From Desulforudis sp. (lineage in GTDB: Bacteria > Bacillota > Desulfotomaculia > Desulfotomaculales > Desulforudaceae): DNA of 64,000 bases. The DNA is taken from positions 1 through 64,000 of the forward strand of contig QZIR01000074.1 in the NCBI GenBank assembly GCA_003604975.1, read 5' to 3'. The notes beneath the pieces were generated by a model. It was not told the DNA's origin, ran no database searches, and saw only the letters and a program-made list of their open reading frames with translations. The stretch's first letter is position 1; each line of letters starts with the position of its first letter. Position numbers and translations under genes: made by a program. This document shows, piece after piece, positions 191 through 44,297 of this stretch.

Positions 191-216
191 CGCGTGACTC
201 TGTGTTGAGTCGACGT

Positions 217-265
217 AAGGCATTGAAGCCGGGTTTGTTTCCGGTTCAATGCCTTTTAGTTTTTC
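217..265 (+). terminator. Strong hairpin with T-tract just upstream of modA remnant
   Basis: An 11-base arm (217-227) pairs with 245-255, and the inner CCGG arms 229-232 and 241-244 extend it. TTAGTTTTT follows on the plus strand. It lies directly before the modA start, so it could end an upstream transcript or be an attenuator in a modA leader. I could not recognise a known riboswitch aptamer in front of it. Confidence 0.55.
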
Positions 266-285
266 TGAAACGGATGGTGATGTTT

Positions 286-759
286 ATGCGGTACAGTTCG
301 ATAAAGATGGTCGTCCTTAGTCTGGTAACATTATTGCTACTGTCTGGTTGTGGGCCGGCGAAAGACCCAGAATCCGGGGTAATGACCCTTTCCGCAGCCA
401 TGGGCCTTAAGAGCGCGCTGACAGAAATTAAGGAAGACTATCTACAAAAGCATCCGGGACAGGAAATTAATATTAACTTTGCGGCATCCGGGGTGCTTCG
501 GACTCAAATCGAGCAGGGTGCCCCGGTAGACCTGTTTATCTCCGCCGACCAAAAGGACATGGATGAACTGGTGGTACGGGGGTTAATCGATACAGATTCA
601 CGGACCAATCTGGTGGGAAACAGACTAGTGATTATCCTCGCTAGCGACATTGTCCTCGACAGCGTCGCGGACGGCCGTGATTGCCTCCAGTGTGGTTGCC
701 TTCCCGCTGTATTATCAGTCCGTAAAGGCGGCTTTCGAAGGAGTGGACGTACGCTATGA
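286..759 (+). pseudogene. modA: modA remnant: molybdate-binding lipoprotein, C-terminal half lost
   Basis: This is the N-terminal half of a ModA-type periplasmic molybdate-binding protein. The start at 286 gives a lipoprotein signal peptide with lipobox LLLSGC, so the mature protein would be membrane-anchored. ModA-like sequence follows: LSAAMGLKSAL, then FAASGVLRTQIEQGAPVDLFISAD. Similarity stops near base 670, after about 128 residues where the family has about 250. The frame then runs into modB sequence in the wrong frame and stops at 759. The C-terminal half of modA and the N-terminal part of modB are missing, as expected from one deletion with its joint near 660-675. No functional binding protein is expected. 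ATG codons at 274 and 280 are alternative starts. Confidence 0.8.
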
Positions 760-1102
760 ACAGGCGGCCAGGACCTTGGGGGCATACGAACCGAAAGTCT
801 TTTTCACCGTAACGCTGCCGTTGGCTTGGCCGGGAGTGGTAGCCGGATTGGTGATGGCCTTTGCCCGGGCCCTGGGTGAATTTGGCGCCACCCTGATGGT
901 GGTGGCGGGTAACATTCCCGGGATTACGCAGACCGTGCCCCTGGCCATCTACTTCGCGGCAGAGGCTGGGGACTACCGGACGGCAACGATTCTGGTGGCC
1001 GTAATATCAGTGGCCTGTTTCCTAGCAATTGTATGGCTGGAATACTGGACCCGGCATCGGATGGCACGGTGGCGGGATGAGCGGGGTAGAGTAAGTGCTT
1101 GA
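671..1102 (+). pseudogene. modB: modB remnant: molybdate ABC permease, N-terminus lost
   Basis: These are the C-terminal two thirds of a ModB-type inner-membrane permease. Recognisable sequence begins at TAVIASSVVAFPLYYQS and includes the EAA-loop region (EQAARTLGA) that contacts the ATPase, followed by ALGEFGATLMVVAGNIPG, typical of molybdate permeases. About 140 residues remain of the usual 220 or so, and the first membrane segments are gone. The frame is open from 650 but lacks a credible start. The TGA at 1100-1102 overlaps the first codon available to the modC remnant. Non-functional as it stands. Confidence 0.8.
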
Positions 1103-1461
1103 GGAGAAACATCACCTATGGGTGTATTGAAGACCGTTACTTATGCCGCGTAAAGGGTAGAGATACACTGACTATGTTGGGCATCGCCCACCTGAGTGAC
1201 CGCTTTCCCGGCCAAATCTCGGGGGGTGAGAAGCAGCGGGTAGCACTGGCTAGGGCGCTTATGGCCGGGCCGGAACTGCTCTTGCTCGACGAATCCTTAT
1301 CCGCCCTGGATCCAGATACCCGTAGTAAGCTGCAACAGAAGATGCTACTGGTCCAACAAAAAACGCAGATCCCCTTCGTCATGGTTACCCACGATGTTGG
1401 CGAGGCCGAGTTAATGGGTGACCGAATCATCCGTATCGAAAATGGTAGGATCCAACAGTGA
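1095..1461 (+). pseudogene. modC: modC remnant: molybdate ABC ATPase lacking Walker A
   Basis: This is the C-terminal part of a ModC-type ATP-binding subunit. It retains the ABC signature ([15 protein letters not shown]), Walker B ([14 protein letters not shown]) and the switch histidine (MVTHD). The first 90 or so residues, with the Walker A loop, are absent, so it cannot bind ATP normally. GTGCTTGAGG at 1095-1104 could be the original start joined by deletion to codons for an NITYG motif, which normally lies beyond the Q-loop. The protein ends after RIENGRIQQ, without the usual C-terminal molybdate-binding (MOP/TOBE) extension. The deletion is separate from the one that joined modA to modB. 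Confidence 0.8.
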
Positions 1462-27379: not shown

Positions 27380-28720
27380 CTAAAACCTATGGACTCCAGT
27401 AACAGATGCATCCCGGTCTCCAAAAACCAGTTTCCTTGCCAGTTCTCTTCTCTGGCGTGCCACCAACACGCTGTCCGGCTCGGCCAACACTTCGGCCAGG
27501 TGGTTTATGATCACTGGCCGTAGAACAACCTGTGCACGACTACCACCAGAGACAGGCTCTCGGACCTCGATTGCCGCATCACCAGCCCCGCTTTCCGTTG
27601 TAGGATAGAGGATGATGGCCTTGGTTACCCCGCGCTGGCTTAGAGCATACAGGGCAAGCTGATACAGCATATCTCTTGGCAGGGAATTCTCCCATAGGTC
27701 CCGATACTTGGCGTCCAGTATGGCCATTACCCGACCCGTTTCGTCAAGGATCACATAATCCGGCCTGGGCACCGGGGCGGATTTCTTCTTGGGATTAAGA
27801 CCGGGAACGTAGGCAAACATACCGTGTAAGCGGTACTCTTCCCGCAAGCGAAAACCGTCCAGGTTTTCACGCAGGAACCGGCCCACCAGCGCCTGGAAAA
27901 AACGGTTCATGTCAAACAGGAAACCAGGCACGGAAACTCCATGAGCTGATCGTTCGAACTCCGTACCCAGGTTGTGGTACAAAATCCTTATCAACTGAAA
28001 GGCTGGCTTGTAGGCGCGCGTCAGCCGGCCGGTTTCCCGTTCAAGACGGGCAAAGACATAATGCGCCAAGTCAACGGTGGCGACGTTATCCGTACACGCG
28101 GCAATCCGTCTTAAACGAGCTCGTAGCTCCAGATCACTGGTCATAGAGGCAGCCAGCCGTACACCTGCCACCAGCATTTGGTTGGGTAAGCAGTCTTCGA
28201 GGCGGGGATAATGCCAACAAGGCAGTGTGGAACCCCAGAGCCCCCCGGTGCGGGCGATTTCCTGGAAACTGATCTTCCCCCGTGGACTGGAGAGACAATC
28301 ACTTCTTGCCTGGTAGGTTCGGTAAAGCCCCCTCGCGACCAACTCGCCGGCCTCAGCAGCAAGTTGGGCTATCAGTAAGTCCTGAAAAGACCGGCTTGAG
28401 GCATCTAGTCGTACATGCTCATGGAGATGCAGGTTGCGTAACCCGTAGGCATACCGGAGAAGCACAACAAGCGGTAAACCGGCTATCTTCGGCCGGACAG
28501 TCACACGCACCGGACCAATTCCAACCGACCCGACATACGATGTGGACCGGATCGCCAGCCCTGACGCCAGTTCTTGGATCTCAAGCTTTCCCGTTTTGGC
28601 CAGAGTGGTCGCCATCCTTCGCGCCGCCGCGTCATCAGCAAACGTCAGCCCCCTCGTCACGCTGTTCTCGTGAGGCAGGAGTTCAGCCCACTCCGACAAG
28701 GTCACCGACACGGCGCTCAC
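27380..28720 (-). CDS. mcrC: McrC: nuclease subunit of McrBC-type modification-dependent restriction
   Basis: A 446-residue McrC. The N-terminal beta-rich region (GSVGIGPVRVTVRPKI) is the McrB-contacting part, and the C-terminal PD-(D/E)xK nuclease carries RPDYVI (Asp321) and LDAKY (Asp336, Lys338). With McrB it would cleave DNA containing modified cytosine. The GTG start overlaps the mcrB stop by four bases (GTGA), so translation is coupled. Because mcrB is frameshifted, McrC may lack a working motor. Confidence 0.9.
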   Translation of the reverse strand: MSAVSVTLSEWAELLPHENSVTRGLTFADDAAARRMATTLAKTGKLEIQELASGLAIRSTSYVGSVGIGPVRVTVRPKIAGLPLVVLLRYAYGLRNLHLHEHVRLDASSRSFQDLLIAQLAAEAGELVARGLYRTYQARSDCLSSPRGKISFQEIARTGGLWGSTLPCWHYPRLEDCLPNQMLVAGVRLAASMTSDLELRARLRRIAACTDNVATVDLAHYVFARLERETGRLTRAYKPAFQLIRILYHNLGTEFERSAHGVSVPGFLFDMNRFFQALVGRFLRENLDGFRLREEYRLHGMFAYVPGLNPKKKSAPVPRPDYVILDETGRVMAILDAKYRDLWENSLPRDMLYQLALYALSQRGVTKAIILYPTTESGAGDAAIEVREPVSGGSRAQVVLRPVIINHLAEVLAEPDSVLVARQRRELARKLVFGDRDASVTGVHRF

Positions 28721-31024
28721 GCCTGTTGCCCCTCGGCTTGGCCCCCCGCATCAGGAGTCTCCGCACCGATGTCCTCAGGTTCACTACTGTCTGTTTGTTC
28801 CTGTTCAACCTTCACTACGGAGAACGACGCCGAGAGCTCCGGACACGGCGCTAGCAGGGCACGGATGAGGTTGTCCTTCTGGTCCGGATCCAAGAGTTCT
28901 TCCCTGAACCGCTGCGCAGACACGTCCACCAGGGTTTTCCCCAAAACACCTGCAAGACTGGTGTAATCTTCATAACAATACTCCTCCAAGAGAGGAAACA
29001 AATCCTCACGCAAGACACGAACCAACTTGGCAAAACTGGTGATAGGCTTCGAACCATCCATCAGGTACGAGTGACCGATCTGGAGATTGCGCGCATCCCG
29101 CCCTATGTTCGCGCAGATACGCTGGTTCAGGGACTCAAGCCACGCCCAGGGGTATCCCGTCCACCACAACATCTCCCAGTACACCCGGATCGGGCATCAA
29201 CTCCACAAAGCCAAAGCGCCGCCTGAGGGCCGTATCCATCAGGGCAATCGATCGGTCCGCCGTGTTCATCGTGCCAATCACGTAGAGATTGTCCGGAACA
29301 CGGAAAAGGTCACCGCTCAGCGGAAGGATAACCGGCTTCTTTCGCTTAGACTTTTCGAGAACAGTCATCAGTTCGCCGAAAATACGTGGGATATCCCCGC
29401 GGTTGATTTCATCAATGATCAGGTAGAAACGGTAGTCAGGGTTGGCCTGCGCCTCCGCACATATTCTCTTGAATACACCGGACCGCAGCACAAAACCCAT
29501 CTGCCCCCCGTTCGTCTCCGGCCGGTAGCCTTCTAAGAAATCCTCGTAACCGTAAGCCGGGTGAAAACAACACATCCGGACCAGCCCCTCCAGCCGGTCT
29601 CCGCCGATCACTGTCGTCCTTTCTTCCTCGCTCAACTGGCCATAGTCCCGGCCAAACCGGTAGTGCGCGGCGAGTTGTCTTGCCGCGATTTCGGCCCAGT
29701 AGGTCTTGCCGGTCCCCGGCGGCCCGTACAACAGCACCTGGCCCTTCCGTTCCAGGACGTGCTGAATTCGTCTCGGAAGACCGTCCAGTAGAGGAGCTTG
29801 CGAAGGAATCCTTGGTAAGACCAATGGCGACGGATCAGGTCTTAGAATCCGCTTCTCCGCTTCCACTTGATTTACGGCATACTTGCGATACTCCCGAAAC
29901 GTACTCTGTAGCCCTTCCGGGGTTGGCATTTTCCATTCGTCCAGACTGAGCCATTCCACCGGACGGCGGTGAGGAAAATCCGAATCAGCATCGTAAGAGT
30001 ACCCTCCCGTCACCCTGCCGATGCCCAAAACCGTCTGACCATCGCAGGCCAGCACCAGGTCACCCTCAAACATGCTGGTTACAAAGTTCCAAACCTCAGC
30101 CGTCTGCCTGCCGATCATCTGAGGTGTGTTTGAATACTGTTCTTCCATCAAATGGCGTAGCTTTTCCCGCAGCTCCCGGCTTTTCCAGTAGCCAGACAGG
30201 TCGCCCAGAAGCGGCCACCCAATAGCGATAAGATTCCCGTCCCGCATCAGGTCCCAGCGGTTCCTGGCCCTGGTTCCGTCACTCGTCCCAACACACCAGT
30301 ACTTGTAGGGCCTCCCGTTCCTAGCGTGGAGCACCATAATCAGGTGGCTCAGGTGCATACCCAATTCGCCGGCGAGACGCACAAAGCGACCGGCCGCCAA
30401 ATACCGGCCATCACCTTCCGGCGGCAGTTGCAGAAGCTTGATAAGGTGAAACCGCTGGTAGTAAGGTACGTGATATGAGTCAAGCTTTTTCGGGTAAAGC
30501 AGGCTAAAATACTTGTGTCCCCACGCCGAGTTACTGACATCGGGGCACTTCTCATCCATCGCCTGCTGCAACTGCCGGTACTGATCATCTGAGGCACCTT
30601 CCGGCATAGCTTCCAGAAGGGCAACCCCCCTGATCAGTTGCTCCCTGTGCTTCCTGGCCACGGCTACCGCCTCATCCAGCGAGATTTCATGCTTTTCGGA
30701 AGGACTACCCACAACCCACGCGCCGGTGTCGCTGCGCCAGTAGATCCCAAACTTGAGAGCGCTTCCACCGGCGATGCTCCCGAATACAGCCGGGAACTCT
30801 TCATCGTCCTTGAACTCCAGCCAGTAGACCAAGCTGTCGCGTTTGCTGTGGTCATGCATGGACTCCAGGAGTATTGGACCGTCCATACGCATCAACTGCT
30901 CAGGTCCGAAGCGTTTCCGGAAAGTAGTGCAGTACTCTTCCAATTGCGTGGTAGGTCTCAACTTTCCTTTAGCAAGCATATCCTGATACCGTCCGAGAAT
31001 GTCTTCCCGGATAGCCCCCAGCAT
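28717..31024 (-). CDS. mcrB: McrB-like AAA+ GTPase, frameshifted near the C-terminus
   Basis: The motor subunit of the McrBC system. The first frame (31024-29135, 629 aa) has an N-terminal domain of about 230 residues, an EVE/PUA-like module (about 240-350; [20 protein letters not shown]) that could read a modified base, and the McrB GTPase core: Walker A GPPGTGKT (434-441), Walker [20 protein letters not shown] and the McrB hallmark GTMNTADRS. It runs out of frame after DGIPLGVA at 29135. The remaining C-terminal lid ([14 protein letters not shown], then GHSYLMDG) continues in the frame 29184-28717. One indel near 29140-29160, within or beside ACCCCTGGGCG, would restore a protein of about 770 residues. 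This may be a true mutation, an assembly error or, less likely, recoding. Confidence 0.85.
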
Positions 31025-31082
31025 CTTCTCAACTCCTTACCCTGCCGCTCTTAATCGCCTATCTCGTTTGACTAGAAATCAC

Positions 31083-31805
31083 CTAAACAGCGCCGTGGAC
31101 TGATGGAATTTCGTCCCAGGTGCGTCCGCAAAGCCGGCGTCCTGCCCGTTTCTTGTTGATACCACCCCACTGTTTAAAGAAAAAGGGTACTTGGGCCACC
31201 GAGCATTGATCCTGAATATCTGTAACCCAGCTTTCCAACATGGGACGCGCGTGTGGCCCTGACTCACCACCTACTATCAGCCAGTCGACTCCATCCAGAT
31301 TCAACCCCTGTAGCGGTCCCAATAAAGGTTCGGCGGAAACGAACTTGACACTTGCCCCAGTCTTTCGCAAATCATCAATGCGGTACACAAAGCGTTCGTT
31401 CTCCACACTTACTCCCATCCATACGTTAGGAGGCCAGTCGATTTCGGGACTCAACTCAGAGAGGCGCTTTGAACGCTTAGTGAGTACCTGGAATTGATGC
31501 CAGGAGGCCTGACGCATAATGCCAAATACACGGTGTATGAAATCCACAGGCACTTCTTCATGAAACAGATCACTCATCGAGTTTACGAAGATCATTTGCG
31601 GCTTCTTCCACCTTAATGGTATTTCCAAGGCATGTTCGTGCATTGTCGGCTGAAACCCATTAGCATAGTTCGGCTGACCCATCGCCTGCAACCTGATGGC
31701 CATTCGTTCGGCATAGCAGTTTGCACATCCCGGGCTAATCTTTGTACACCCAGTCAGCGGATTCCATGTAGATTCTGTCCACTCTATTTCGGATTTTGCA
31801 CCCAC
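31083..31805 (-). CDS. Gp37/Gp68-like three-Cys-motif protein (DUF5131)
   Basis: A 240-residue protein of the phage Gp37/Gp68 family (PF07505). The N-terminus reads [20 protein letters not shown] followed by ANCYAE, a CxxxxxxCxxC cluster resembling radical-SAM-type iron-sulfur ligation, and the rest is a TIM-barrel-like fold with [15 protein letters not shown]. Its activity is unproven. It begins 3 bases after tcmP; the two families are known to co-occur, so they are very likely partners in a DNA-modification or defence function. Confidence 0.85.
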
Positions 31806-31808
31806 ACC

Positions 31809-32936
31809 CTAGTCCCCCTTTGGAGGGAAGATAACCCGTACGTTATCGCCAAACGTGTTCTTTGGACGTCGCTCGGCCGGTGGGTCGGCAATAATGCGGC
31901 CTTCTTCCTCCATGTTGATGAGTACTGCTTTGTAGTTCCTGGCAATAAATGGTCTCCCTACATGATGCCGTTCGTAGATATCCTTCATTTTAATATTTTT
32001 GCCCGCAAACTCCTCCAACAGCATCTCTCCGAGTTCATCCAGCGGCCGCGAAAGCTCAAACAAAACAGGATATCTCCTGTCTGCAGGATTATACTCAAAA
32101 GACGGGACTCCGAACTCAGAACGGGAACTCCTTCTTGCCATAATCTCCTTCATAATGTTGTACCCCCGAAGATGTTTGCTGACAAAAATCAAATGGTGGC
32201 TAGTTCGGGTTCCCCGGTTATTTCTGAAACGAAACGGCAAGACATACTTGCCACCAAGTTGCCGTAGTGCCTGGACGATCTCTTCCACAATGGTAAATTC
32301 TCGCTCGTGCGGTCTGAGGCTATGTGTTTGACTTCGCAACCTTTGTGCCCGCTCCTCACCGAAAAGAGCATCCATATGGAGTTTCACAGCATCGTTCTGT
32401 ATTCCCATACTGATCCTGTTGTAATTGAAAAAAAGTATACACTCACAACCCCAGTCTTTTAGAACGGAACTGATCAAGCGCAGGGAAAGCCCTTTGTATC
32501 CCCATGGATCAACAAACAATAGAGTAGGGACAAGGCGGAACCGCTCGAAAATCTCGACAATCTCATCGCCAACCTCAAAGCTGTACACCAACGGTTTAAA
32601 ACGTAGAGTCTCGACCCCGGAAAGATTGAGAATCTCCCTCTTTAATGATTCCGAAAACCCCTTGTCTACGTCGTTAAAGACTGTGATCAGTTTATCACGC
32701 AGTTCTGGATTGCCAATTGCCTGCTCCAAGATTGCTAGCGGAGTAGAGCCTGTTCCGTCCTTGTATCTACCAGGAACTGAGAACAGATCAACATACGCAA
32801 TTCGCCCTTTCAGACGACCACTCTTCTTCTGAGCTGAAGATATTACTGTTGCCCACGCCCAAAAGTATTTTGCGACAATAGATGCTTTGATCAGGGATTG
32901 CTCAGATCTTTCGTCAAAGAAAGCATCCCCGTTCAA
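31809..32936 (-). CDS. tcmP: Three-Cys-motif partner protein TcmP
   Basis: A 375-residue TcmP-family protein (TIGR04474), named for its co-occurrence with the three-Cys-motif gene next door. The N-terminal region KASIVAKYFWAWATVI and YVDLFSVPGRYKDGTGSTPL are typical; LLFVDPWGYKGLSL resembles a Rossmann-type methylase motif, so a SAM-dependent activity is possible but not shown. TTG start with GGGAGGG eight bases upstream. Its base composition is clearly AT-richer than the flanking core genes, a sign of transfer. The 166-base gap to the DUF499 gene may carry its own promoter, though none is convincing. Confidence 0.85.
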   Translation of the reverse strand: MNGDAFFDERSEQSLIKASIVAKYFWAWATVISSAQKKSGRLKGRIAYVDLFSVPGRYKDGTGSTPLAILEQAIGNPELRDKLITVFNDVDKGFSESLKREILNLSGVETLRFKPLVYSFEVGDEIVEIFERFRLVPTLLFVDPWGYKGLSLRLISSVLKDWGCECILFFNYNRISMGIQNDAVKLHMDALFGEERAQRLRSQTHSLRPHEREFTIVEEIVQALRQLGGKYVLPFRFRNNRGTRTSHHLIFVSKHLRGYNIMKEIMARRSSRSEFGVPSFEYNPADRRYPVLFELSRPLDELGEMLLEEFAGKNIKMKDIYERHHVGRPFIARNYKAVLINMEEEGRIIADPPAERRPKNTFGDNVRVIFPPKGD

Positions 32937-33102
32937 GGTTCACCCTCCCTCCCTAGCAACCGGATGATGCACTATATCTATAAGCATACAATGCTACTCC
33001 GTCACAGCATGGTCACTGGGGCGTAGAACCTGAAAAAGAGCATCTTAAGTGGCCGTACCAAAACTGCTAGTAAATACAGTAATCCACCATATGTATGAGT
33101 GG

Positions 33103-35871
33103 TTACTCAACCTTTACCCGCTCTGTCAATCCCAAGTCTTGAAGTATCTGTTTCACGTCAGACTCGAAACTCTGGGAAACGGTGTCGTCTACAGTAACCG
33201 AAAACTCAATACCAATCTTAAGATCAGAACCGTTCCGTAGCTTCGGTAGAATCTTCGTTCCCAGCCGGTTCCATATTTCGGGAGGTAGGTCTCCGAAAAT
33301 CCGGAACGCCTTGGTGGCAGCGCCTGGCTCAGCTTCCGGGCTAGGTTCCGGCTCCAGTCCCGGAATATCCACCGGTCTTGGTTCAGGTCCGGGGCATGGG
33401 TCAGGACCAACTACTGGCGGAGACTCCGAGGCAACCTTTAAAGTCTTCGCTTTGGCCTTCAATAGGAGAAACACACCGGACTCGAAGGCGACCTCATCCG
33501 CCGCAATAGGCTCATTAAACCATACACTCTCATAGCCGTCATCCGGCTTGTGCCCGGAAGCCAGACCGAAATCGCCTCGTTGTACAAACTCGGTGATCTT
33601 GGTTTGCAGTACTCCATCCGGGTCAAGCAGTCTTGTAAGCGAGCCATTTAAAAAGCTTTGCCTAAGGCTTGTCAAAGGCCATGCCCCGGAAGCTTTTAGC
33701 GCCGGGGGCCAGTTCCGCTCGATGTAGCCCGCACCCACGGACTCGTTCAGTAAGGCCTGCGACTTTAGTGCCGTGATCACGCGCCCACAGAGCGTCTCTC
33801 CGCCGCTGGAATGACCGGCACCGAGGTCAATAGCCTGCAATCCGTCGGGTTCATCCTTGTCCGCCAAGACCACAAAACGGTAGCCGCCCCAGACCTCGTC
33901 CTTGGCAGCTTCCGCTACTTCAGCCACCTTTGACTGGATTTCAGCCCGGTCGGCACGCTCAAAATCACCACCCAGTGTCCCATCGGCAACCTCCCGCGCC
34001 ACCCGCTTCCAAGCAAGCCACATCTCAACACTTTCGCGCAGATCGCGGCCCGGTTTTTTCAAGCACCATACTAAAGACCCTGGATACAGCCTCGGCGACT
34101 TGCCCCGCATCTTTGTCCATTCTGCTATTTGCTGTCGAAACGCATTTCCGCCTGTCCACTCATGCCCCGGGTCAACCACCACAAGTGTGAGCTTGGGGGT
34201 GTCCTGAACGGCAGCTCCATCCTCCGGAAATAGGACCAAAGGAATACTCGTCCCACGCCTGAACTCCTCTTCGATGAGTCTACGCATAGCTGGTTTGATT
34301 TCGGATTCCTCATCAAGGGAAGCACGCCGGTCGTTAACCACCTTCTTCATCGTCGGCTGGTGGCTGATCTTGAAACCGTCCGAGCCAACCCGCCGAACAA
34401 AATAAGCCTTGTCCTCTAGCGCAAAGGCCGCATTGTCTACCGAGGTGGTATCCATATTCGGCTCCCCAAGTGCAAAGCGTAACTCGGGCAAGTGCGCCAC
34501 CCTGTCCACCTGACCACCGGACGACTCAAACAGAATGGTGGTCCCTACGCGGCGGTAAATATTCCGTAGCGCACCCTTGGTGTCTGCATCAAGGGCGCGT
34601 GCATGGGAATGGGTCCCGGAAATGTCGGCATCAATTGCAGCTACAAGGCGGGACTCCCCAAGCTGACCCAGCACAACGCTCCGAAAATCAGGTACCTCAA
34701 GCGGAGCCGAGCCGATCGTGATGAGAGGTTCTCGGCGTGCCTCCATGAAGCCGGTTCGATAAGCCCAAGAGATCCATTGCGCCAGCATGGCCAATGTGCC
34801 CCGCGTCTGCTGGTACTGCGAGAGCGCCTGCCACTTGCGTTGGAATACCGACAATGTCGCTGGGTGAAACGGGTAACAAGTCTCGAAACGGCTGCGGAGA
34901 TATTCCCTGGCTTTGGCCTCCGTGGTTGCGCTATCCACCGCCGTCCATTCGGGCGGGAGTTGCGCCCGACGTTCAAAACACCAGTCCCCGTAAACTCTAG
35001 CTACGTTCTTCCGAACACGGTCGTTCCCGATGTCCTCAAAAAGTCGGCGACGCACCACTTCGCTGATTTCGGTTTCATCATTGGCTATCAGATCCTTGGC
35101 CACACGGCGAACGACCCGGGTAATCTTCTCCTGCCACTGCATATCCCAATCGGTCATCTCCACCTGGCTTCGCGGCAGGCTGATGACCGCCGCGCCGTAG
35201 GTAGTGCCCGTGGTGGCCACGGTCAGGTTCTGGATAAAGGCGTGGAACTGCTCGGCCATTCCCCGATGACGGTTCAAGAAATTCAATACCTCGTCAAACA
35301 AGAGAAGAATCGGCCCACCCGCCGCTTTGAAAACCCGGCCCAGAGCCTCCGTCCCTGGCGGCGTTGTTCTGGCTGCCGTGCCAAGCTCCCTGACACCATC
35401 TTCCCCAGCTAACTGCCAGGCGATGTCAATCCAGGGCGTTTCCCGCCCCTCTTTTGGATCCCAAGCGTTACCAACAAATGCGGCGACACGGGTCTGCGGA
35501 ACAGTGCCGACCCCCGCCTCTTTGAGCATCCTGTCGACACCGGGATACTTGGACGCTTTTTCACTGTTGGTAACAAGGTGATAAAGTACGGTGAGCGTAT
35601 GGGTCTTGCCGCCGCCAAACTGGGTAATGAGCGTCATTACCGGCGCCGTATTCGCGGTTTGGCCGGAGAGGCGTCGCAGAACCATCCCCGCATGTTCGCG
35701 CAGCGCCCGTGTAAAACAGGTCCGGGCGAAGAACTGTTGTGGGTCGCGATAGTCCTCCGGGGCGGTTTTCGCGATCACCTGCTCGAGGTGGATGGCAAAC
35801 TCGTCCGGGTTGAACGAACGCCCTTCTCTTACTTCCTTGCGTGGCGTAGCAACTTTGTACCAGGGTTCCAC
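33103..35871 (-). CDS. DUF499 AAA+-type ATPase
   Basis: A 922-residue predicted ATPase of the DUF499 family (COG1483). The Walker A-like ITQFGGGKTHTL lies near residue 85-95, Walker B LLLFDEVLNFLN near 190, and an arginine-rich helicase/AAA core follows to about 400. The C-terminal half has a beta/alpha domain, then a Pro/Glu/Gly-rich linker (PGPEPRPVDIPGLEPEPS) and a small C-terminal domain. DUF499 proteins are typically encoded beside DUF1156 methylases, as here (39 bases). GTG start with AAAGGAGG. It is inferred to be the motor or specificity-controlling subunit of the four-gene system. Confidence 0.85.
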   Translation of the reverse strand: MEPWYKVATPRKEVREGRSFNPDEFAIHLEQVIAKTAPEDYRDPQQFFARTCFTRALREHAGMVLRRLSGQTANTAPVMTLITQFGGGKTHTLTVLYHLVTNSEKASKYPGVDRMLKEAGVGTVPQTRVAAFVGNAWDPKEGRETPWIDIAWQLAGEDGVRELGTAARTTPPGTEALGRVFKAAGGPILLLFDEVLNFLNRHRGMAEQFHAFIQNLTVATTGTTYGAAVISLPRSQVEMTDWDMQWQEKITRVVRRVAKDLIANDETEISEVVRRRLFEDIGNDRVRKNVARVYGDWCFERRAQLPPEWTAVDSATTEAKAREYLRSRFETCYPFHPATLSVFQRKWQALSQYQQTRGTLAMLAQWISWAYRTGFMEARREPLITIGSAPLEVPDFRSVVLGQLGESRLVAAIDADISGTHSHARALDADTKGALRNIYRRVGTTILFESSGGQVDRVAHLPELRFALGEPNMDTTSVDNAAFALEDKAYFVRRVGSDGFKISHQPTMKKVVNDRRASLDEESEIKPAMRRLIEEEFRRGTSIPLVLFPEDGAAVQDTPKLTLVVVDPGHEWTGGNAFRQQIAEWTKMRGKSPRLYPGSLVWCLKKPGRDLRESVEMWLAWKRVAREVADGTLGGDFERADRAEIQSKVAEVAEAAKDEVWGGYRFVVLADKDEPDGLQAIDLGAGHSSGGETLCGRVITALKSQALLNESVGAGYIERNWPPALKASGAWPLTSLRQSFLNGSLTRLLDPDGVLQTKITEFVQRGDFGLASGHKPDDGYESVWFNEPIAADEVAFESGVFLLLKAKAKTLKVASESPPVVGPDPCPGPEPRPVDIPGLEPEPSPEAEPGAATKAFRIFGDLPPEIWNRLGTKILPKLRNGSDLKIGIEFSVTVDDTVSQSFESDVKQILQDLGLTERVKVE

Positions 35872-35910
35872 AGGCTTCGCCTCCTTTGCACTCTCCTTTG
35901 CCCTTCACAC

Positions 35911-38900
35911 CTACCTCGGTACAGCCAAGAGCATAGCGTCCAGCAGGCGCTTTTCCTCGCTGCCTTTCGGGTAAAGCGCCGACAGTGCGTTGGCGAGGCG
36001 CAGGAAATCGGGGCCGCGCTCCTGCTCGGTCTTGATCAGCACCCGAAGGGCGTTCGCCTGGCCGCCCGCCTGCAGCAGCATGGCAGCATGAACGTGGTCG
36101 AGCGTAGTGGCCTCCCGCTCAGACTGGAACTCAACATCCTTCGCATCCACGGCTATCTTACGGCGACGGCCGCGAGTCTTTGGCACAGGTCCTTCCTCAA
36201 GTTCGGGGAAGAGCGTCAACTGGAGGTCCTTCTTCTGGTCCGGCCCAACCCAATCGGCCACGGCCTCGGCACCATCTTTACCGAACAATTGCTTGGCACG
36301 CTCGGACACGGACATAAGTCGTACAACACCCTTCTTGGTCTCGATTATCCGACCCTCCCACTTGGGAAGCCCGATGCCCAGGGGCTGGGCGAAGCGGCGC
36401 ACTACGTCGAAGACCAGGCTGTAGCCCTTGGCTTTACCGGATGGAGCGGTCTCCTCGTCCTCGTCGCCAGCATTGTCCTCGGTTTCCTCATCCGGACCCT
36501 CGCTGGAACCATTCTGGCCTTTGGTGCTCTGGAGTGTCCAGAGAAAAAGAGCAGTGAGACGTGCGTCTTCTTCTAAAGCCCCAGCCACACCGTTTCTTGC
36601 TTTGGCCTCTCCCGTCCCCAAAATGTTTTCCAGAGCTGTTCGACCAACAACTTCCCACACCTTCTCCAGATACTCGTCGAGCTTGACCTCGCGGCCGTCG
36701 GCGGTCTCGACCTTCGAGTGGCGGCTGAAGATCTCCAATGCTGGGCCAATACAGGCGAAAACCAGGTCCGCACCGCGAACGCTTTCCCCTTGGAGCCGTT
36801 CCATCCAGTCGCCGACACGTTTAGGTAGCTCACGCAGCACTTCACCCCAGTCACCTACCGGAGCATCATCGGGCCTGGGGCGGCAGACAAGGTGAACGCT
36901 GGTGGCGAGAGCGGCTGACTGCTGTGAGCGGAGCCGGTTAGCGCGCTCTGTTGCGATGGGCCAAGAAGCAGTAATTACCCAGCCCCCACGAATCATACCT
37001 GAAAGGAGGGCTTCCCACCCTTCCGTTGTCTTATGCGCAAAGACGACGCTTCCAACGCCGTCTCCACGCAAAACCCGGCGGCCTTCACCAAAGACTGTCG
37101 TCATAGCGTCTTCAAAAAAGGCACGGTCTTTGATCCGCGAATCGTATGTCTTGGTCTCATCCTGAACAATCTCCCGCACTTTCGGCGTCAGAAGATTTCC
37201 ACCATCAAATGGGTCACGCAGCAATACTGTTCTAGGAAGACACCGTTTCAACCAAACGAAGAAGAAGTCAGCTAAATCAGCGTAGGGAACTGCATCGTAG
37301 TACGGAGGGTCTGTGAACCATATTTGCGATGCCTCATCAGGCAGAGGCGACGTACGGGCGTCTGCAAGCTGGACTTGTCCATCACCTGAAAGACCCGAAA
37401 CGGAAACCACTGCTCCCACTAGCTGTTTTAGCACATTGTGGTAGCTGCCAGTGGCATTGCTGAAAGGAGAACCTTCAGCAAAATCCCACACTATCGGCAA
37501 TGCTTGTCGATTGAAAACGTGGCCAAGCTTTTCGCCTCCCGTATCCCATCCAACAAGTGAGGCAATCCGGTCGGACAATCTCGAAACCACCAAGGCCAGA
37601 AGTTCACGGAGAGTTCCATCTCCTGCAAACCTGGCAGTCCAGCTAGAAAGGCTCACTAGGCAAAGAGTTTGGCGGGTCGTAAAAAGATCGCCGAAGGTCA
37701 TCATGCCATACTTTTGCACGGAGAAGGCACGGCCCGCTCCTGAACCGCCGCCAGCGGGCGTGGGTTCGTCCGGCACGGGACACAGACCCAACTTCCCGCT
37801 GCGCTCCCACTCGTCAATAATCTCCTTCATTCGCTTTTGAGCCTTCCAGACAGCCTGATAGTCATTCTCGGCCGGCAAGCGGTAGCGGCGACCCTGCTTA
37901 ACAGGCATAAAGGTAATAACGGCCAACATTCGCGCGCCACCAACGCGCTTGCCCGTGGCGTCAAAGACTACTTCCGCACCACCGCGCTGTTCGGAAAGCT
38001 GAGCGCGGACACGTGTCGCCGGAAGGACCGCTCCGCAACAAAGGCACGTCGCCTTGGCGCGGGTAACACTGCCGACGGGGACATCCCTGTCCACCTTTGG
38101 TTCAAAGACCTCGTACTCCACTCTTGGTCGGTCATCCATTAGCCGGACAACCTTGTACCGGAGTGCCCACTTACGTCTGGCCTTGGTAGAAAGCCAGAAG
38201 GAGCGCACCAACGGGATCTCCGCGCCGCAATTGGGCGACTCGCACCATACAGTCCGCGCCCAAAGGTAGGCAATGGGCATCGCGCCGTCCGGGTCTTTTG
38301 GGTAGAACTCGGCCAGCTCCTTCTCGGCCTGCTCCCTAATCTTCGCACCAACTCGCTGCAATTCCTCAGCTAGTTCTGACCCGTGGCGGGGAATGTCCTC
38401 CAGCATAACCTTGTTGAGCAGGCAGGCAACTGGGTTAAGGTCACTGGCGAAGGCCTCGCAGCCAAGACGCAATGCCTCAAGCGGAATCGAACCGCCTCCA
38501 GCAAACGGGTCTACCACCAGTGGTGTCTCCTCTGGATGCGCGGCTTTTACCAGGCCACGGCTTACTTCAAGATAAAACATATGTGTCGAATGCTCCCACG
38601 CCGAGGAATCAGCGATAAATTTCAGCAGCGCCTTGCGAAGCTCCTCGTCCTTGACGCCAAAGGTTCCCTGGACGTTTGGCAACAACGCCCGCGCCCTCGC
38701 TTTGAATTCCGTTGGGCACAGTGGATCACACGGGTCAGGCAACAACAACCCCAAAAGCATTGCCCGGCAGGCCGCCAACGGTCGTCGCGCCCACCATTGA
38801 TGAAACGACTGAGGATGATTCCGAACGATAGGCTTCTCTCTTACCGAATGCTTAGAAACCTCTGCAATGGGAAAGTCTACTTCTGCCAGTCGCCTGCAGT

Positions 38901-38913
38901 CCTTGGGGATCAT
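35911..38913 (-). CDS. DUF1156 DNA methylase with zinc-binding cysteines
   Basis: A 1000-residue protein of the DUF1156/COG1743 type, a predicted amino-methylating DNA methylase. The N-terminal DUF1156 region (HPQSFHQWWARRPLAACRAM) is followed by the SAM-binding motif DPFAGGGSIPLEAL (135-148), two Cys pairs (CESPNC and CLCC) likely to bind zinc, and catalytic motif IV DPPYYDA (535-541). The product would be N6-methyladenine or N4-methylcytosine. It starts within the last codons of the UvrD gene (ATGA overlap), showing translational coupling. It probably marks self DNA while the helicase and nuclease partners act on unmarked DNA. Confidence 0.88.
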   Translation of the reverse strand: MIPKDCRRLAEVDFPIAEVSKHSVREKPIVRNHPQSFHQWWARRPLAACRAMLLGLLLPDPCDPLCPTEFKARARALLPNVQGTFGVKDEELRKALLKFIADSSAWEHSTHMFYLEVSRGLVKAAHPEETPLVVDPFAGGGSIPLEALRLGCEAFASDLNPVACLLNKVMLEDIPRHGSELAEELQRVGAKIREQAEKELAEFYPKDPDGAMPIAYLWARTVWCESPNCGAEIPLVRSFWLSTKARRKWALRYKVVRLMDDRPRVEYEVFEPKVDRDVPVGSVTRAKATCLCCGAVLPATRVRAQLSEQRGGAEVVFDATGKRVGGARMLAVITFMPVKQGRRYRLPAENDYQAVWKAQKRMKEIIDEWERSGKLGLCPVPDEPTPAGGGSGAGRAFSVQKYGMMTFGDLFTTRQTLCLVSLSSWTARFAGDGTLRELLALVVSRLSDRIASLVGWDTGGEKLGHVFNRQALPIVWDFAEGSPFSNATGSYHNVLKQLVGAVVSVSGLSGDGQVQLADARTSPLPDEASQIWFTDPPYYDAVPYADLADFFFVWLKRCLPRTVLLRDPFDGGNLLTPKVREIVQDETKTYDSRIKDRAFFEDAMTTVFGEGRRVLRGDGVGSVVFAHKTTEGWEALLSGMIRGGWVITASWPIATERANRLRSQQSAALATSVHLVCRPRPDDAPVGDWGEVLRELPKRVGDWMERLQGESVRGADLVFACIGPALEIFSRHSKVETADGREVKLDEYLEKVWEVVGRTALENILGTGEAKARNGVAGALEEDARLTALFLWTLQSTKGQNGSSEGPDEETEDNAGDEDEETAPSGKAKGYSLVFDVVRRFAQPLGIGLPKWEGRIIETKKGVVRLMSVSERAKQLFGKDGAEAVADWVGPDQKKDLQLTLFPELEEGPVPKTRGRRRKIAVDAKDVEFQSEREATTLDHVHAAMLLQAGGQANALRVLIKTEQERGPDFLRLANALSALYPKGSEEKRLLDAMLLAVPR

Positions 38914-40862
38914 AGGCGCGCATCATCCAAGCTCTGAAGATACCCCTGGCCTAGTTGAGGCGCGACTGGTGCATCCTGTAGGAAGCGTGTAAGCGAGCGG
39001 TAGGTCTGTCCGGAGGTCCTGCCCGTATGTCGCTGTGGCCCGGTTCGCCGATTGCAGTATGTAATAAACAGATAGTGCTTCGCACGCGTCAGGGAGACAT
39101 AAAGTAGCCTGCGCTCATCACTAATCGCATCGCCCTTAGCTCGACCAGGTAGGTATTCATCCTCCGCAGCCACAATGATAACAGCCTCCGCTGTGAGCCC
39201 CTTGGCCTTATGCATAGTCAGGATGTTTACTTTCCCCTCTTCAATTTCCTGCTCGATATCTTCCCTCGAGACATCCATGGCACGTACGAGGCCATTTATG
39301 GAACCCGGATCAGCCGCCCTGATAGTCAATTCAAATTGACGCCCAATCACCTGCCGATGCCCTTCGTCTGGCACAACTCGACTCATGATTCGCCTTATCG
39401 TCTCGATCAGATCGGTGTCACCTTCCTCTGATGGCAAGAGCGACGAGAGCTCCTGGAGGGTCATTCGAATGACCTCTACCTCCGCTTTGATCCGTCCTCC
39501 ATGCCGTCCAGAGACGGAGGAGGGATGATTGCACGTAATTTGCAACGCCTCGGCGAACCTTGCGTTGCATGATTTGGCAAGCTGGTATATAACGTCTGCC
39601 GCGCCCGGTCCCAGACCGTTATTGCGAAGCTTGAACAGTGTTCTCCACGCTAGATGATCATTCTCGTTGGCGAGTAGCCGCAGGAAGGCGAGGACCTGGC
39701 GTCCAACAGCCTCGTTCAGGGGATCTGTGTCTGCGGTAGCGACTCCGACTGGGACATCCTGCGATTCCAACGTTTGTCGGAGTACGGAGGAAAAAGCTCC
39801 GTTACGATCCGTTCGTAAAAGGATCAGTATCTGACCCGGTTCAACCCCCCGGTTACTAATCAGATCTCGGCAGATTTGCGCGACCCCTTGCGCCTCTTGG
39901 TTCTGGTCGCGGAAGCGCAATAGAGCGATTTCACCGCCATCGCGTCCGTCGTCAGCCCGTAGCGGCTTATCTATTCTGCGGTAGTCCTGCCGGGCAACAA
40001 ATAATCCCAAATCAAGGACCTCTTGGTCACAGCGCTTGCAGATTTCGAGCGCCAGCTCACGCGCACCCGGGTAGTCCTGAGGGAATCGACGGATGCCTTC
40101 CGGATGCGCCATTCGAAAACCGTAGATGCTCTGATCATCGTCACCGGCCACGTAGACCTCGGCACCCTTATCCCCGATTGCCTTTACAATGCCTAGGTCG
40201 CATCGGTTCAGGTCCTGATACTCATCAACCAGGAGATAGCCGGGTGGTCCCTCAAGCGTGAAGTCGTCGTGTTGCTCAAGAGCGCGTTTCAACTGATAGA
40301 CGAGTTCTGCGCGTAGTAAGTAACCATAGATCTCGCGGTGTTCTCTCCACGCCCCAAGAAAGGCGGGATTTGGAAAGCGTTGATCCCAATCGCCTTCATC
40401 TGCTGTTAGGCTCTGCCAATCGGCCGAAAGTTCGTTCAGCAAGCATCGTGCTTCATCAACTGTATTCAGGCCGAGCAAGGCCTTCAGATCTTCTAAGATG
40501 ATATAGCGTTCCTCCCAATCATCCGCAATCCTCAGGGGTTGCGGAAGCGATGTAAGACGCGCGGAATTACGCAGCAGTTGCCTGAGGGCGAAAGAGTGTA
40601 GCGTCGAAATCCTCGGCACCTTCTCATGACCCACCTCGGATTGCACACGCTGCCGTAGCTCGTGTGCAGCAGCCCGGGTGAACGTTAGAGCACATATTTC
40701 GCCCGGCTCAACGTTTCTTGCTTCGATCAGAAAGCAAATACGCTTGGTCAAAGATCGTGTTTTGCCTGTTCCAGGTCCTGCAAGGAGGCGAGCATGCGAA
40801 CCGAAATATCCGGCCGCACTCCTTTGTTCGGGTAGCAGTCCTTCGTCCCAAGGCATTGTCAT
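38910..40862 (-). CDS. UvrD/PcrA-like superfamily 1 helicase
   Basis: A 650-residue SF1A helicase. Walker A AGPGTGKTRSLT (about 28-39), motif Ia ALTFTRAAAHEL, motif II LLVDEYQDLN, motif III VAGDDDQSIYGFR and motif V/VI (NILTMHKAKGLTAE; LYVSLTRAKHYLF) are all present. No nuclease domain is seen. It is shorter than housekeeping PcrA (about 720-750) and lies between the DUF1156 gene (4-base overlap) and the SNF2 gene, whose extended frame ends at the base before this ATG. The context makes it part of the defence module rather than the chromosomal repair helicase. Confidence 0.88.
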   Translation of the reverse strand: MTMPWDEGLLPEQRSAAGYFGSHARLLAGPGTGKTRSLTKRICFLIEARNVEPGEICALTFTRAAAHELRQRVQSEVGHEKVPRISTLHSFALRQLLRNSARLTSLPQPLRIADDWEERYIILEDLKALLGLNTVDEARCLLNELSADWQSLTADEGDWDQRFPNPAFLGAWREHREIYGYLLRAELVYQLKRALEQHDDFTLEGPPGYLLVDEYQDLNRCDLGIVKAIGDKGAEVYVAGDDDQSIYGFRMAHPEGIRRFPQDYPGARELALEICKRCDQEVLDLGLFVARQDYRRIDKPLRADDGRDGGEIALLRFRDQNQEAQGVAQICRDLISNRGVEPGQILILLRTDRNGAFSSVLRQTLESQDVPVGVATADTDPLNEAVGRQVLAFLRLLANENDHLAWRTLFKLRNNGLGPGAADVIYQLAKSCNARFAEALQITCNHPSSVSGRHGGRIKAEVEVIRMTLQELSSLLPSEEGDTDLIETIRRIMSRVVPDEGHRQVIGRQFELTIRAADPGSINGLVRAMDVSREDIEQEIEEGKVNILTMHKAKGLTAEAVIIVAAEDEYLPGRAKGDAISDERRLLYVSLTRAKHYLFITYCNRRTGPQRHTGRTSGQTYRSLTRFLQDAPVAPQLGQGYLQSLDDARL

Positions 40863-43800
40863 TTATCCATCCTTCCCATACGGCCGAGCGTCTTCCCGTA
40901 CCTGCATCGGCCGGGTCATCGCATCCACCTGTAGCCAGTAGTGCTGCACCTTAGTAACCTCGTGCCACGGAAAACGCGCCGGGTCCTTAATGGGTTCCTG
41001 CAGTGTGGGCTACGAGGCGCAATTGGTGACGACATACAACCAGTAGCAGTCCCGACGGTCTTCCGCGACCCGGCGTTCGTTGGGTGTGAGTAGGATCGTC
41101 CCCCTGGCCTCGGCCAGTCCCTTCACCTCAATCAAGCGCAGTTCGCCGGAATTGAGATCAAGGCTGGTAATGTCGTAGCCTAGGTTCTTCTCATGAACAT
41201 CGTAGACCTGGCGGCCTTGAGCCTGCTCGTATTCCATAACCACCTGCATAGCGGTGGCCTCAGTCTCCCGGTTGGGCCGCATGCGGCAAATATCCGGGGC
41301 CTCGCGCTCTGGGTGCGGCAGAACCAGGATAGAGGTAATGCGCTCCACGGCCTGGAGGGACAGGGAGTGCTGCTGCTCAAGCTCCTTCCGCCGGCGCTCC
41401 CGTCGCACCAGAAGCTCAGCGTGGCGGTTCTCCGCCTGGGCCAAACGGCCTTCAGCCCCAGGCACACCCTTTTCTTTTTCCTCGTTCGCCTTACCGATCT
41501 CATCGTCCGCGCGCTGGAGGAGCTCGGTAAGGGAAAGCTCCACGTGCTCGGCGATACGCTCTACCTCGACCAAGCGTTCATTACGGGTCTTCTCCAGAAA
41601 GGCCTGCAGCGCATTCGCGTGGAACCAAGTAGTCGCTTCGGGGGCAAAGGCCACAGCGGGCAGTTCGTTCGGCGGTGTAGCGGGCGCGAAGTTGCCTAGC
41701 ATGTTAGGCTCGCGCAAGTGTAGCGGACCACTCTCTACAAGCTCAACGGCGAAGAGCCGTTCGTGAACGATGTGGCCCAGGCCGTCCACCACCCGAGCGC
41801 GGTAAAAATCAATCCTGGACGGCTCCTCATGCTGGAGAGAGTAAAAACAAGTTCCCTTGCTGAACGCCTCGATGGCCTGCACATAGGTGTGCCTGCGGAT
41901 GGCCTCAAAAAGCGGATGCCCAGGCGTAACCCACTCGAGGTTGTGTTTTTCGGCAGCATCGCGGTCCGTGGAGCAACGCGGGTACTTATTTGTAAGGGTT
42001 GGTAGTTTCCAGTCAGGTTCCCGTTCGTAGTGCCGGAGCACCGCCGGTGTCCGGGCTGGCTCGAAGGTGTGCGGTATACTCTCAAAGGCCTTGAGCCTTA
42101 GCGGGACGTAACTGGCCGCCTCGCGAATGAAGCGAACGATGGTTTCCGGAACGACACGGCGTTCCTGCGCCCGGGCGCGGCGCTCAATTAACATTTCCAG
42201 GTTCAACTTCTTGGACGCCAGGCCTTCAAGGGCGTTCTGGCAGATGGCGCGGAACCGCCCTTCATCAACACTCTCAAGGAGCCGCTCTTCGAGGTCGGCG
42301 TCGCCGAGTTTCCCGGCATAATATTCCCTCAGGACGCGCTCTACGTGGGCGGCGGGAAGCACTTCGCCCACCACGTTGAATACCGCATCATCGTCAAGGG
42401 CATTCCGGATTTCCTGCAGTTTCTCCAAAATCCGCTGCAAGACTCGCCCCTCGATGGTGTTGGTCGCCACGAAGTTGAAGATGAGGCAGTCCTTCCTCTG
42501 GCCGTATCGGTGGATCCGCCCCATGCGCTGTTCCAGACGGTTGGGGTTCCAAGGGATGTCGTAGTTGAAAAGGATGTTACAGACCTGGAGATTGATGCCT
42601 TCACCCGCCGCCTCTGTAGCGACAAGGATCTGAGTCGCCCCTTCCCTGAACTGCTGCTCGGCATAGAGACGTGTGCCGGGCTCGTCCCGCGATCCCGGCC
42701 TCATGCCGCCGTGGATACAACCGACCCTGAAGCCCCAAGTCTTCAGCTTCTCCATGAGGTAGTCGAGCGTGTCCTTGAACTCGGTGAAGATCAGCAGACG
42801 CTGGTCCGGGCGGTCGAAGAACCCCTCATTCTGGAGGAGGTCTTTCAACCGGGAGAGTTTCGATTCGGCCCCGGAATCCTCCACTATCCAGGCCTGGTCT
42901 GCAAGACCGCGGAGTTCTTCAATTTCTTCTCTGACCTGGTCCGCGTTACCGGCCAGGGTAATTGCCTCCAGTATTCTCTCGAGGCGCTCTCGTTCGTTTT
43001 CTTCCATCTCCTCAAGTTCTTCAGGATCAGGGAGATCGGGTGGTGCAAGGCGGACGAGTTCCTGCGCGCGCTTAAGACCTTCCTCAAGCCTGCGGGCACG
43101 ATTCTCCAGGCTGTGTCGCATGGCATAGGTGCTGGATGCCAACCTGCGCTGGTAGAGGGACATCAGGAAACCCACTGCCCGGGCGCGGGGATCGTCACCC
43201 TGAGCTGCGGCCTTGGCGCTCTGTCGCTTCACAAATCGGGTGACATCCCTGTACAGTTCAAACTCCGGCCCGTCGATCTGGAAATCAACGGTGTGCGGAA
43301 TGCGCTTCGTAAAAATCTTCTCCGCCACCCACGTGCCATCCGGACGCCGCTCGGGGAAATAGACCATCGCCTCCTTGGTGCGGCGCAGGTAAAACGGCGC
43401 ACGACGGCGATCCATGGCTTCGCGAATGGACCTTACGTCCGCATAGGCGTCCGTATCCAGTAGCTGCAAAAGCAGACTGAAGTTTACCGGGTCACCTTTG
43501 TGCGGGGTTGCGGTAAGTAAGAGAACATGGTCGGAGGTGTCCCGGAGTAGCTCACCAAGGGCGTACCGTGCTGTCTTACGCGCGGGAGGTGTCCACGACA
43601 TCCGGTGGGCCTCGTCCACTATGATAAGGTCCCAATGGACCTGCCTGAGTCCGGGAAGGATTTCGTTCCTCTTGGCCAGGTCAAGGGACGTGATGACCTT
43701 TCTCTGCTCAAGCCAATGGTTAATGCCAAATTGGTCTCTGATGTCACCGCCTTTAAGAACCATAAAGCTCTCGTCAAACTTCTCCTTGAGTTCGCGCTGC

Positions 43801-44297
43801 CACTGGAAGGAAAGGTTAGCCGGGCAGGCGATCAAAACCCGTTCGGCCAGCCCCCGCAGCTGGAGTTCGCGGATGAGAAGTCCTGCCATGATGGTCTTTC
43901 CAGCACCTGCGTCATCCGCGAGTAGGAACCGAACTCTAGCCAGCTTCAAAAGGTAGTCGTAGACCGCTTCAAGCTGATGCGGCAGGGGATCAACTCGGGA
44001 GATGGAGAGGCCAAAATAAGGATCAAACTCGTAGGCGATACCGAGGGCGTGAGCCTGCAACCCCAGCCGGAGTAAACGCCCGTCAGCATCATAACTGTAG
44101 TTAGCATCCGTAATGGTAAGGCCCTCGAAGTCGTTAGCGCTGAGCGTAACCTTGCGGAATCGCTCAGACTGTATGCCGACCAGTCCAAGGACCCACGTGC
44201 CATCACCGCTTGTTCGGACAGTCTCTACACGCATCGGCTCACTAAAGAGCGAACCCCTCAATATCTGGCCCTCGCACGGGACTGAGAACCCTGACAC
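40863..44297 (-). CDS. SNF2-like helicase with DUF3883 domain, in-frame amber codon near the 3' end
   Basis: An SF2/SNF2-type translocase. The N-terminal specificity region is followed by Walker A LADDAGAGKTIMAG (about 125-138), DEAH box IIVDEAHRM, motif III LLTATPHKGD, motif V ILVATEAAGEGINLQ and motif VI QRMGRIHRYGQ. A coiled coil (about 940-1000) precedes a C-terminal DUF3883 domain (GYDITSLDLNSGELRLIEVKG). The first frame stops at TAG 41010-41012 after 1095 residues. The same frame stays open for 48 more codons (PTLQEPIKDPARFPWHEVTK; VQHYWLQVDAMTRPMQVRE) to a TAA directly abutting the UvrD ATG. The true end was probably there. GTG start with AGGAGAAGGA. Confidence 0.85.

What the first reader, a model, noticed from the sequence alone, without database searches (positions are those of the whole stretch)
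40863..41012. In-frame amber codon with 48 conserved-looking codons after it in the SNF2/DUF3883 gene
The frame after TAG (41010-41012) stays open and protein-like (EPIKDPARFPWHEVTK, VQHYWLQVD) and ends with TAA exactly one base before the UvrD ATG. That fit means the original gene ended there. It is either a nonsense mutation, an assembly error, or suppression; pyrrolysine decoding is possible in principle in some Peptococcaceae but has no direct support here.
Basis: partly seen in the sequence, partly recalled or inferred. Interest (0 to 1): 0.55.

Follow-up and report, generated by a model that had tools for sequence, protein, structure and literature searches.

The report
Broken phage-defence helicase gene (HmaA)
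One premature stop codon cuts the last part off a phage-defence enzyme in this bacterium, most likely a recent ordinary loss-of-function mutation (a sequencing error is not excluded), while an intact relative of the same gene sits elsewhere in the same genome.

Summary
The gene is hmaA, the SNF2 helicase-nuclease of an Hma (DUF499-centred "Type-1 BR") defence operon, minus strand 41010-44297. TAG at 41010-41012 is followed by 48 open codons and a TAA that directly abuts the uvrD ATG. None of 78 homologues readable at that column has a stop there; they carry E, K, T, A, Q and others and continue for 30 or more residues. The window's tail is as consensus-like as intact ones (rank 66 of 69), so the stop is young or an error. 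The lost part adjoins and probably completes the C-terminal PD-(D/E)XK nuclease. Pyrrolysine and amber suppression are rejected: no pylS over cut-off, no MttB, no CUA tRNA among 46, RF1 present, TAG ends 17 of 46 window ORFs. Other hmaA homologues have stops at other places, so the site is not programmed. A second Hma operon in this genome has an intact hmaA (85% identical). A McrB-like gene 12 kb away is frameshifted, which suggests real decay. Best reading: a recent private nonsense mutation disabling the effector of one of two Hma systems. An assembly error cannot be excluded without reads. Ordinary.

The parts
41010..44297 (-). hmaA as it stands (1095 aa, GTG start): SNF2 helicase with NOV_C/DUF3883 C-terminal domain, cut by TAG
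   Evidence: PADLOC HmaA E 5.1e-169; Pfam Helicase_C, SNF2-rel_dom, NOV_C (on the read-through P0001); ORF
41010..41012 (-). premature TAG codon
   Evidence: sequence; 0 of 78 readable homologues have a stop in this column
40863..41009 (-). former 3' end of hmaA: 48 codons plus TAA, still protein-like
   Evidence: homologue tails; tail profile score rank 66 of 69 from the lowest
40870..40877 (-). GGGAAGGA, Shine-Dalgarno-like site of uvrD lying in the last codons of the hmaA tail, 7 nt before the ATG
   Evidence: read directly from the sequence; function inferred
38910..40862 (-). UvrD-like helicase gene between hmaA and hmaB, open frame of 650 aa
   Evidence: Pfam UvrD-helicase, UvrD_C; GajB-like in PADLOC
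35911..38913 (-). hmaB, DUF1156 DNA methylase, open frame of 1000 aa, the same length as the contig-47 copy
   Evidence: PADLOC HmaB E 1.6e-107; Pfam DUF1156; lengths
33103..35871 (-). hmaC, DUF499 ATPase, open frame of 922 aa (932 and 924 in the contig-47 and G005 copies)
   Evidence: PADLOC HmaC E 1.1e-92; Pfam DUF499; lengths
29135..31024 (-). McrB-like AAA gene, frame lost near 29140
   Evidence: Pfam AAA_5; ORF ends early and its C-terminal part lies in another frame
28717..29184 (-). overlapping ORF in another frame whose part from about 29142 down encodes the missing McrB-like C-terminus
   Evidence: matches inside continuous 764-807 aa frames in G287, G126, G295, G269

Best explanation
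The TAG is a recent, private nonsense mutation in hmaA. It removes the last 48 residues of the protein. At least about 30 residues follow this column in each homologue whose end could be read, and they adjoin and probably complete the C-terminal PD-(D/E)XK nuclease domain, so the truncated protein probably misfolds there or cannot cut, and the restriction side of this Hma operon is off (inferred). The presumed catalytic motif of the nuclease (GYD ... EVK; role recalled) and both helicase motor domains lie upstream and are kept (shown). hmaB, hmaC and uvrD are open frames, so methylation can continue without restriction (inferred). The stop also leaves 144 nt untranslated before uvrD and uncouples its translation from hmaA, although uvrD keeps its own Shine-Dalgarno-like site (inferred). 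The cell carries a second Hma operon with intact hmaA on contig 47 (shown), which may have relaxed selection on this copy (inferred).
For: Column test: 80 loci from one search, 78 readable at the column, no stop; E 18, K 15, T 10, A 8, Q 6, D 5, N 4, V 3, M 2, R 2, S 2, H 1, L 1, G 1 (own-genome loci L001 and L002 left out of this count). Phylum search with the C-terminal 142 aa: 46 matches in 45 of 398 genomes, 32 of the 46 running past the column, only the window's with a stop. Tail undecayed: rank 66 of 69 from the lowest, window included, 14 of 83 rows with fewer than 38 tail residues left out; pN 0.11-0.21 and pS 0.54-0.96 in the tail over 11 pairs. Columns P1105, W1110, K1115, H1118 (L144 numbering) after the stop are invariant in the 58 sequences aligned. 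The domain model of the intact copy (column at residue 111) aligns past the column, to residues 143-151, with Hjc, NhoI, Eco15I and SPARDA chains at Z about 9-11. Intact hmaA copies in the same genome and in the same-family genome G005. A McrB-like gene in the same island is frameshifted, while 31 of 37 ORFs scanned outside 29135-44297 had Pfam matches, most spanning their profiles nearly end to end.
Against: No reads were available, so the base itself is unverified, and the undecayed tail fits an error equally well. Loss of function is inferred. The full-length model is mediocre (mean pLDDT 69.6, pTM 0.47), and in the isolated domain the tail is low-confidence after residue 130. Rows for VRR_NUC and FAN1 nucleases, aligned with low-confidence stretches left out, end at residues 106-117, that is at or near the column, so the core fold may be nearly complete without the tail. 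Tail pN is more than twice that of the adjoining region in 4 of 11 pairs, so the tail may simply be less constrained. The Pfam survey is a weak test of sequence quality: it has partial matches (three ABC-transporter pieces at 202-1461, DUF445, YtxC and others), 6 ORFs without a match, and would miss lesions outside domains.
Confidence: 0.62

Rival explanations
1. The TAG is a base error of sequencing or assembly, or a minority allele fixed in the consensus; the real gene is intact.
For: The tail is fully consensus-like and the other genes of the operon are open. The genome is in 75 contigs with 1.91% contamination. A second lesion nearby, in the McrB-like gene, could be an error too.
Against: Of 37 ORFs scanned outside 29135-44297, 31 had Pfam matches, most nearly end to end, which speaks weakly against a high error rate. 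The two lesions sit about 12 kb apart in one compositionally distinct stretch of defence genes, where real decay is plausible.
Confidence: 0.28
2. The short protein is functional and the last 48 residues are dispensable, so the TAG is simply a new natural end.
For: The presumed catalytic motif lies upstream of the TAG. The last 16 or so residues are variable or missing in some homologues such as L013, L035 and L069. FAN1 and VRR_NUC rows align only up to about the column.
Against: None of the 76 loci with a stop in view ends within about 30 residues of the column. Four columns after it are invariant in 58 aligned sequences. Hjc, NhoI and SPARDA rows align on to residues 143-151.
Confidence: 0.05
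3. Ribosomes read through the TAG at some rate, giving a long active and a short inactive form.
For: The downstream frame is intact and conserved.
Against: No other homologue seen has a stop there. Other hmaA stops found are at unrelated positions and are TAA or TGA. RF1 is present. No CUA tRNA was found. TAG ends 17 of 46 ORFs picked in the window.
Confidence: 0.04
4. The TAG encodes pyrrolysine.
For: Only that it is an in-frame TAG; pyrrolysine occurs in some anaerobic Firmicutes (recalled; a Peptococcaceae genome paper appears in the search listing, not read).
Against: The three PylS matches score 21-29 bits against a cut-off of 178; 13 of 14 control genomes also show matches and only 1 passes the cut-off. 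No MttB. No CUA anticodon among 46 tRNA matches. TAG is a common terminator. Homologues have no one conserved residue at the column.
Confidence: 0.01

Closest known systems
Hma system (PADLOC paper 2021, PMC8565338), treated as a DUF499-centred Type-1 BREX-Related system in PMC12839542
   Same: helicase (HmaA) with C-terminal nuclease domain, DUF1156 methylase (HmaB), DUF499 ATPase (HmaC) in one operon
   Different: hmaA is truncated by a TAG; a UvrD-like gene sits between hmaA and hmaB
Sporadic nonsense inactivation of a restriction effector with its methylase left open (general knowledge of restriction-modification systems)
   Same: single stop in the effector gene, modification gene open
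   Different: loss of activity not tested here
Pyrrolysine-encoding TAG genes such as mttB
   Same: in-frame TAG with an open frame after it
   Different: no pyl synthetase over cut-off, no CUA tRNA found, no conservation of the TAG

Membership tests
Hma / Type-1 BR defence system | HmaA SNF2 helicase | tested here: met
   PADLOC HmaA E 5.1e-169
Hma / Type-1 BR defence system | HmaB DNA methylase with DUF1156 | tested here: met
   PADLOC HmaB E 1.6e-107; Pfam DUF1156
Hma / Type-1 BR defence system | HmaC DUF499 ATPase | tested here: met
   PADLOC HmaC E 1.1e-92; Pfam DUF499
Hma / Type-1 BR defence system | C-terminal PD-(D/E)XK nuclease fused to the helicase (Type-1 BR; present in 79% of taxa by PMC12839542) | tested here: met
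   NOV_C match; model of the intact contig-47 copy's domain aligns with Hjc and NhoI at Z about 10-11. In the window copy the end of this region is cut off.
Hma / Type-1 BR defence system | phage restriction | not testable with these tools
   needs an experiment
Pyrrolysine-encoding gene | pylS in the genome | tested here: not met
   best 28.7 bits against a cut-off of 178.15
Pyrrolysine-encoding gene | tRNA with CUA anticodon | tested here: not met
   46 matches of RF00005, none with CTA by ARAGORN; an aberrant pylT missed by both programs is possible
Pyrrolysine-encoding gene | TAG rare as a terminator (recalled) | tested here: not met
   17 of 46 picked ORFs of 100 aa or more end with TAG
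Programmed stop-codon read-through | stop conserved at the same place in homologues | tested here: not met
   0 of 78 readable loci; of 32 matches running past the column only the window's own has a stop

The most novel reading that the evidence does not exclude
The stop is a selected, leaky off-switch: the cell keeps the methylase of one Hma operon on and its helicase-nuclease mostly off, with low-level read-through giving a reserve of active effector, while the second operon does the everyday work. Scattered stops in other hmaA genes (3 of 80 loci, plus 1 with a frame change) and none in the aligned hmaB stretches would fit repeated selection against the effector.
Probability: 0.03. Interest if true: 0.45.

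Novelty: new member of a known kind. Interest (0 to 1): 0.13.

Why it matters
It matters little by itself. It suggests that profile-based annotation would file this Hma operon as complete, since the PADLOC profile still scores the truncated HmaA at E 5.1e-169 although its C-terminus is cut. If effector genes of such systems are lost more often than their methylases, defence-system counts from genomes overstate active defence; the numbers here (3 stops in 90,396 aligned HmaA residues, 0 in 45,269 HmaB residues) are too small to say.

Tried and rejected
Pyrrolysine, amber suppression and programmed read-through: rejected. The 'TAG inside' flags for SNF2 genes of G005 and G006 looked like a family-wide TAG; reading the frames showed the normal stop of 697-699 aa genes, and by my reckoning the matches overrun it by at most two residues. 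Codon-rate analysis was limited because synonymous sites are near saturation; the script stopped with an error at the twelfth homologue, L014, which has its own internal stop, so 11 pairs were obtained. PF23316 was a wrong accession and tells nothing. A regular-expression script found no anchors and was replaced by tblastn. No match to the same stretch was found in viral contigs by exact pattern; one 75% relative there, L182, continues about 30 residues past the column. The difference in stop counts between hmaA and hmaB is not significant by my reckoning. One search gave 71 HmaA-like matches in 62 of 398 genomes, many of them probably other SNF2 helicases; two have an in-frame stop (the window and G052), and in G229 the gene seems to be in pieces. 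One search gave 31 HmaB matches in 29 of 398 genomes, none with a stop. One search (McrB-like C-terminus) gave matches in 15 of 299 genomes, own included; open frames of the other 14 run from 319 to 1086 aa, one with an inner TAA, so 764-807 aa describes the four closest only; the junction itself was seen in 2 of 5 loci read. Searches of plasmids (1,045 records, each under 60% identity) and of solved structures (nearest RapA) added nothing to the question. Paper search gave nothing used.

Full report
What is there. The gene on the minus strand at 41010-44297 encodes a 1095-residue SNF2 helicase with a C-terminal NOV_C (DUF3883) domain. It is the HmaA of a defence operon: PADLOC gives HmaA at E 5.1e-169, HmaB (35911-38913) at E 1.6e-107 and HmaC (33103-35871) at E 1.1e-92. 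A UvrD-like gene (38910-40862) lies between hmaA and hmaB; a gene with a GMT-wHTH domain (three-Cys-motif partner by recall), a DUF5131 gene and McrBC-like genes follow. The Hma system was named in PMC8565338 (passages seen), which calls HmaB an m5C methylase. PMC12839542 (sections 28-31 and passages seen) treats the system as a DUF499-centred Type-1 BREX-Related system with an N6 methylase and a helicase that in 79% of taxa carries an active C-terminal PD-(D/E)XK nuclease.

The stop. TAG is at 41010-41012, followed by 48 open codons and a TAA at 40863-40865 that directly abuts the uvrD ATG. A Shine-Dalgarno-like GGGAAGGA for uvrD lies in the last codons of this tail, so the DNA of the tail can serve uvrD whether or not it is translated.

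Homologues. One search of a collection of 84,980 species genomes gave 251 relatives, of which the best 80 were kept. At the TAG column 78 of 80 could be read (not L023, L031): none has a stop; residues are E 18, K 15, T 10, A 8, Q 6, D 5, N 4, V 3, M 2, R 2, S 2, H 1, L 1, G 1. The position is variable and mostly polar. Four of 80 run off their contig; the other 76 show a stop, none within about 30 residues after the column (shortest seen L035, 32 residues by my count). An independent search of 398 genomes of the phylum with the C-terminal 142 residues gave 46 matches in 45 genomes; 32 run past the column and only the window's has a stop.

No decay. In a profile test on the 69 of 83 rows with at least 38 tail residues aligned, the window's tail scored 66th from the lowest. 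In the tail pN is 0.11-0.21 and pS 0.54-0.96 over 11 pairs; in 4 of the 11 tail pN is more than twice that of the adjoining region. Synonymous sites are near saturation, so this shows long constraint, not the age of the stop. Together they say the stop is young, or not real.

What is lost. Four tail columns (P1105, W1110, K1115, H1118 in the intact copy) are invariant in the 58 sequences aligned. In a model of the intact full-length contig-47 copy, residues 1091-1120 have block means of pLDDT 86-90, although the whole model is mediocre (mean 69.6, pTM 0.47). A model of the domain alone (158 residues, column at 111) has block means of 92 at 111-120, 70 at 121-130 and about 40 after that. Aligned with solved structures, Hjc, NhoI, Eco15I and SPARDA rows reach residues 143-151 (Z about 9-11), whereas VRR_NUC and FAN1 rows, aligned with low-confidence stretches left out, end at 106-117. 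So the TAG falls at the end of the nuclease core, after its presumed catalytic motif, and removes a conserved extension; loss of function is likely but inferred.

Recoding excluded. The three PylS matches score 21-29 bits against a cut-off of 178, MttB is absent, RF1 is present, and 46 tRNA matches, read by ARAGORN, include no CUA or UUA anticodon. TAG ends 17 of 46 ORFs of at least 100 aa picked mechanically in the window.

Context. The same genome has a second Hma operon on contig 47 with an intact hmaA of 1142 aa, 85% identical, and a same-family genome G005 has another. Both carry an OLD-like ATPase gene (name recalled, not scanned) in the slot where the window has UvrD. Other hmaA homologues have sporadic lesions at unrelated places: L008 TAA at residue 659, L014 TGA at 166, L030 TAA at 44 (3 of 80), and L023 a frame change near 1055. 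In aligned HmaB no stop was seen (0 in 45,269 residues against 3 in 90,396 for HmaA), a difference that is not significant by my reckoning. A McrB-like gene at 29135-31024 loses its frame near 29140: its C-terminal part continues in another frame, while its four closest relatives have continuous frames of 764-807 aa. Third-codon-position GC is 0.50-0.69 in the main ORFs at 29135-44297 against mostly 0.70-0.88 in the surrounding large ORFs, as for an acquired island (inferred).

Verdict. The likeliest cause is a recent nonsense mutation that disables the effector of one of two Hma systems (0.62); an error in the sequence is the main rival (0.28) and needs reads. It is ordinary biology.

Noticed in passing
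window 28717-31024 (-): McrB-like gene frameshifted near 29140; the missing C-terminus lies in another frame. Its four closest relatives have continuous frames of 764-807 aa.
   Followed up: yes
window 38910-40862; L144; L162; L011; L022; L035; L048; L050; L075; L079: The slot between hmaA and hmaB varies: a UvrD-like gene in the window, L035, L048, L075 and L079, an OLD-like ATPase (name recalled) in L144, L162, L011, L022 and L050, neither matched elsewhere within the flanks held. OLD-like plus UvrD-like recalls the two Gabija parts.
   Followed up: partly
L079:4665-4934 and 5828 to about 6090: The HmaA C-terminal region occurs a second time about 1.1 kb downstream, as a partial duplicate in another frame.
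   Followed up: no
window 202-1461 (+): Three short ORFs match only parts of a solute-binding protein (profile 2-87 of 227), an ABC permease (55-182 of 184) and an ABC ATPase (87-135 of 137), like remnants of a transporter operon.
   Followed up: no
L008, L014, L030, L023: Other hmaA genes with a single in-frame stop or a frame change at unrelated positions.
   Followed up: partly
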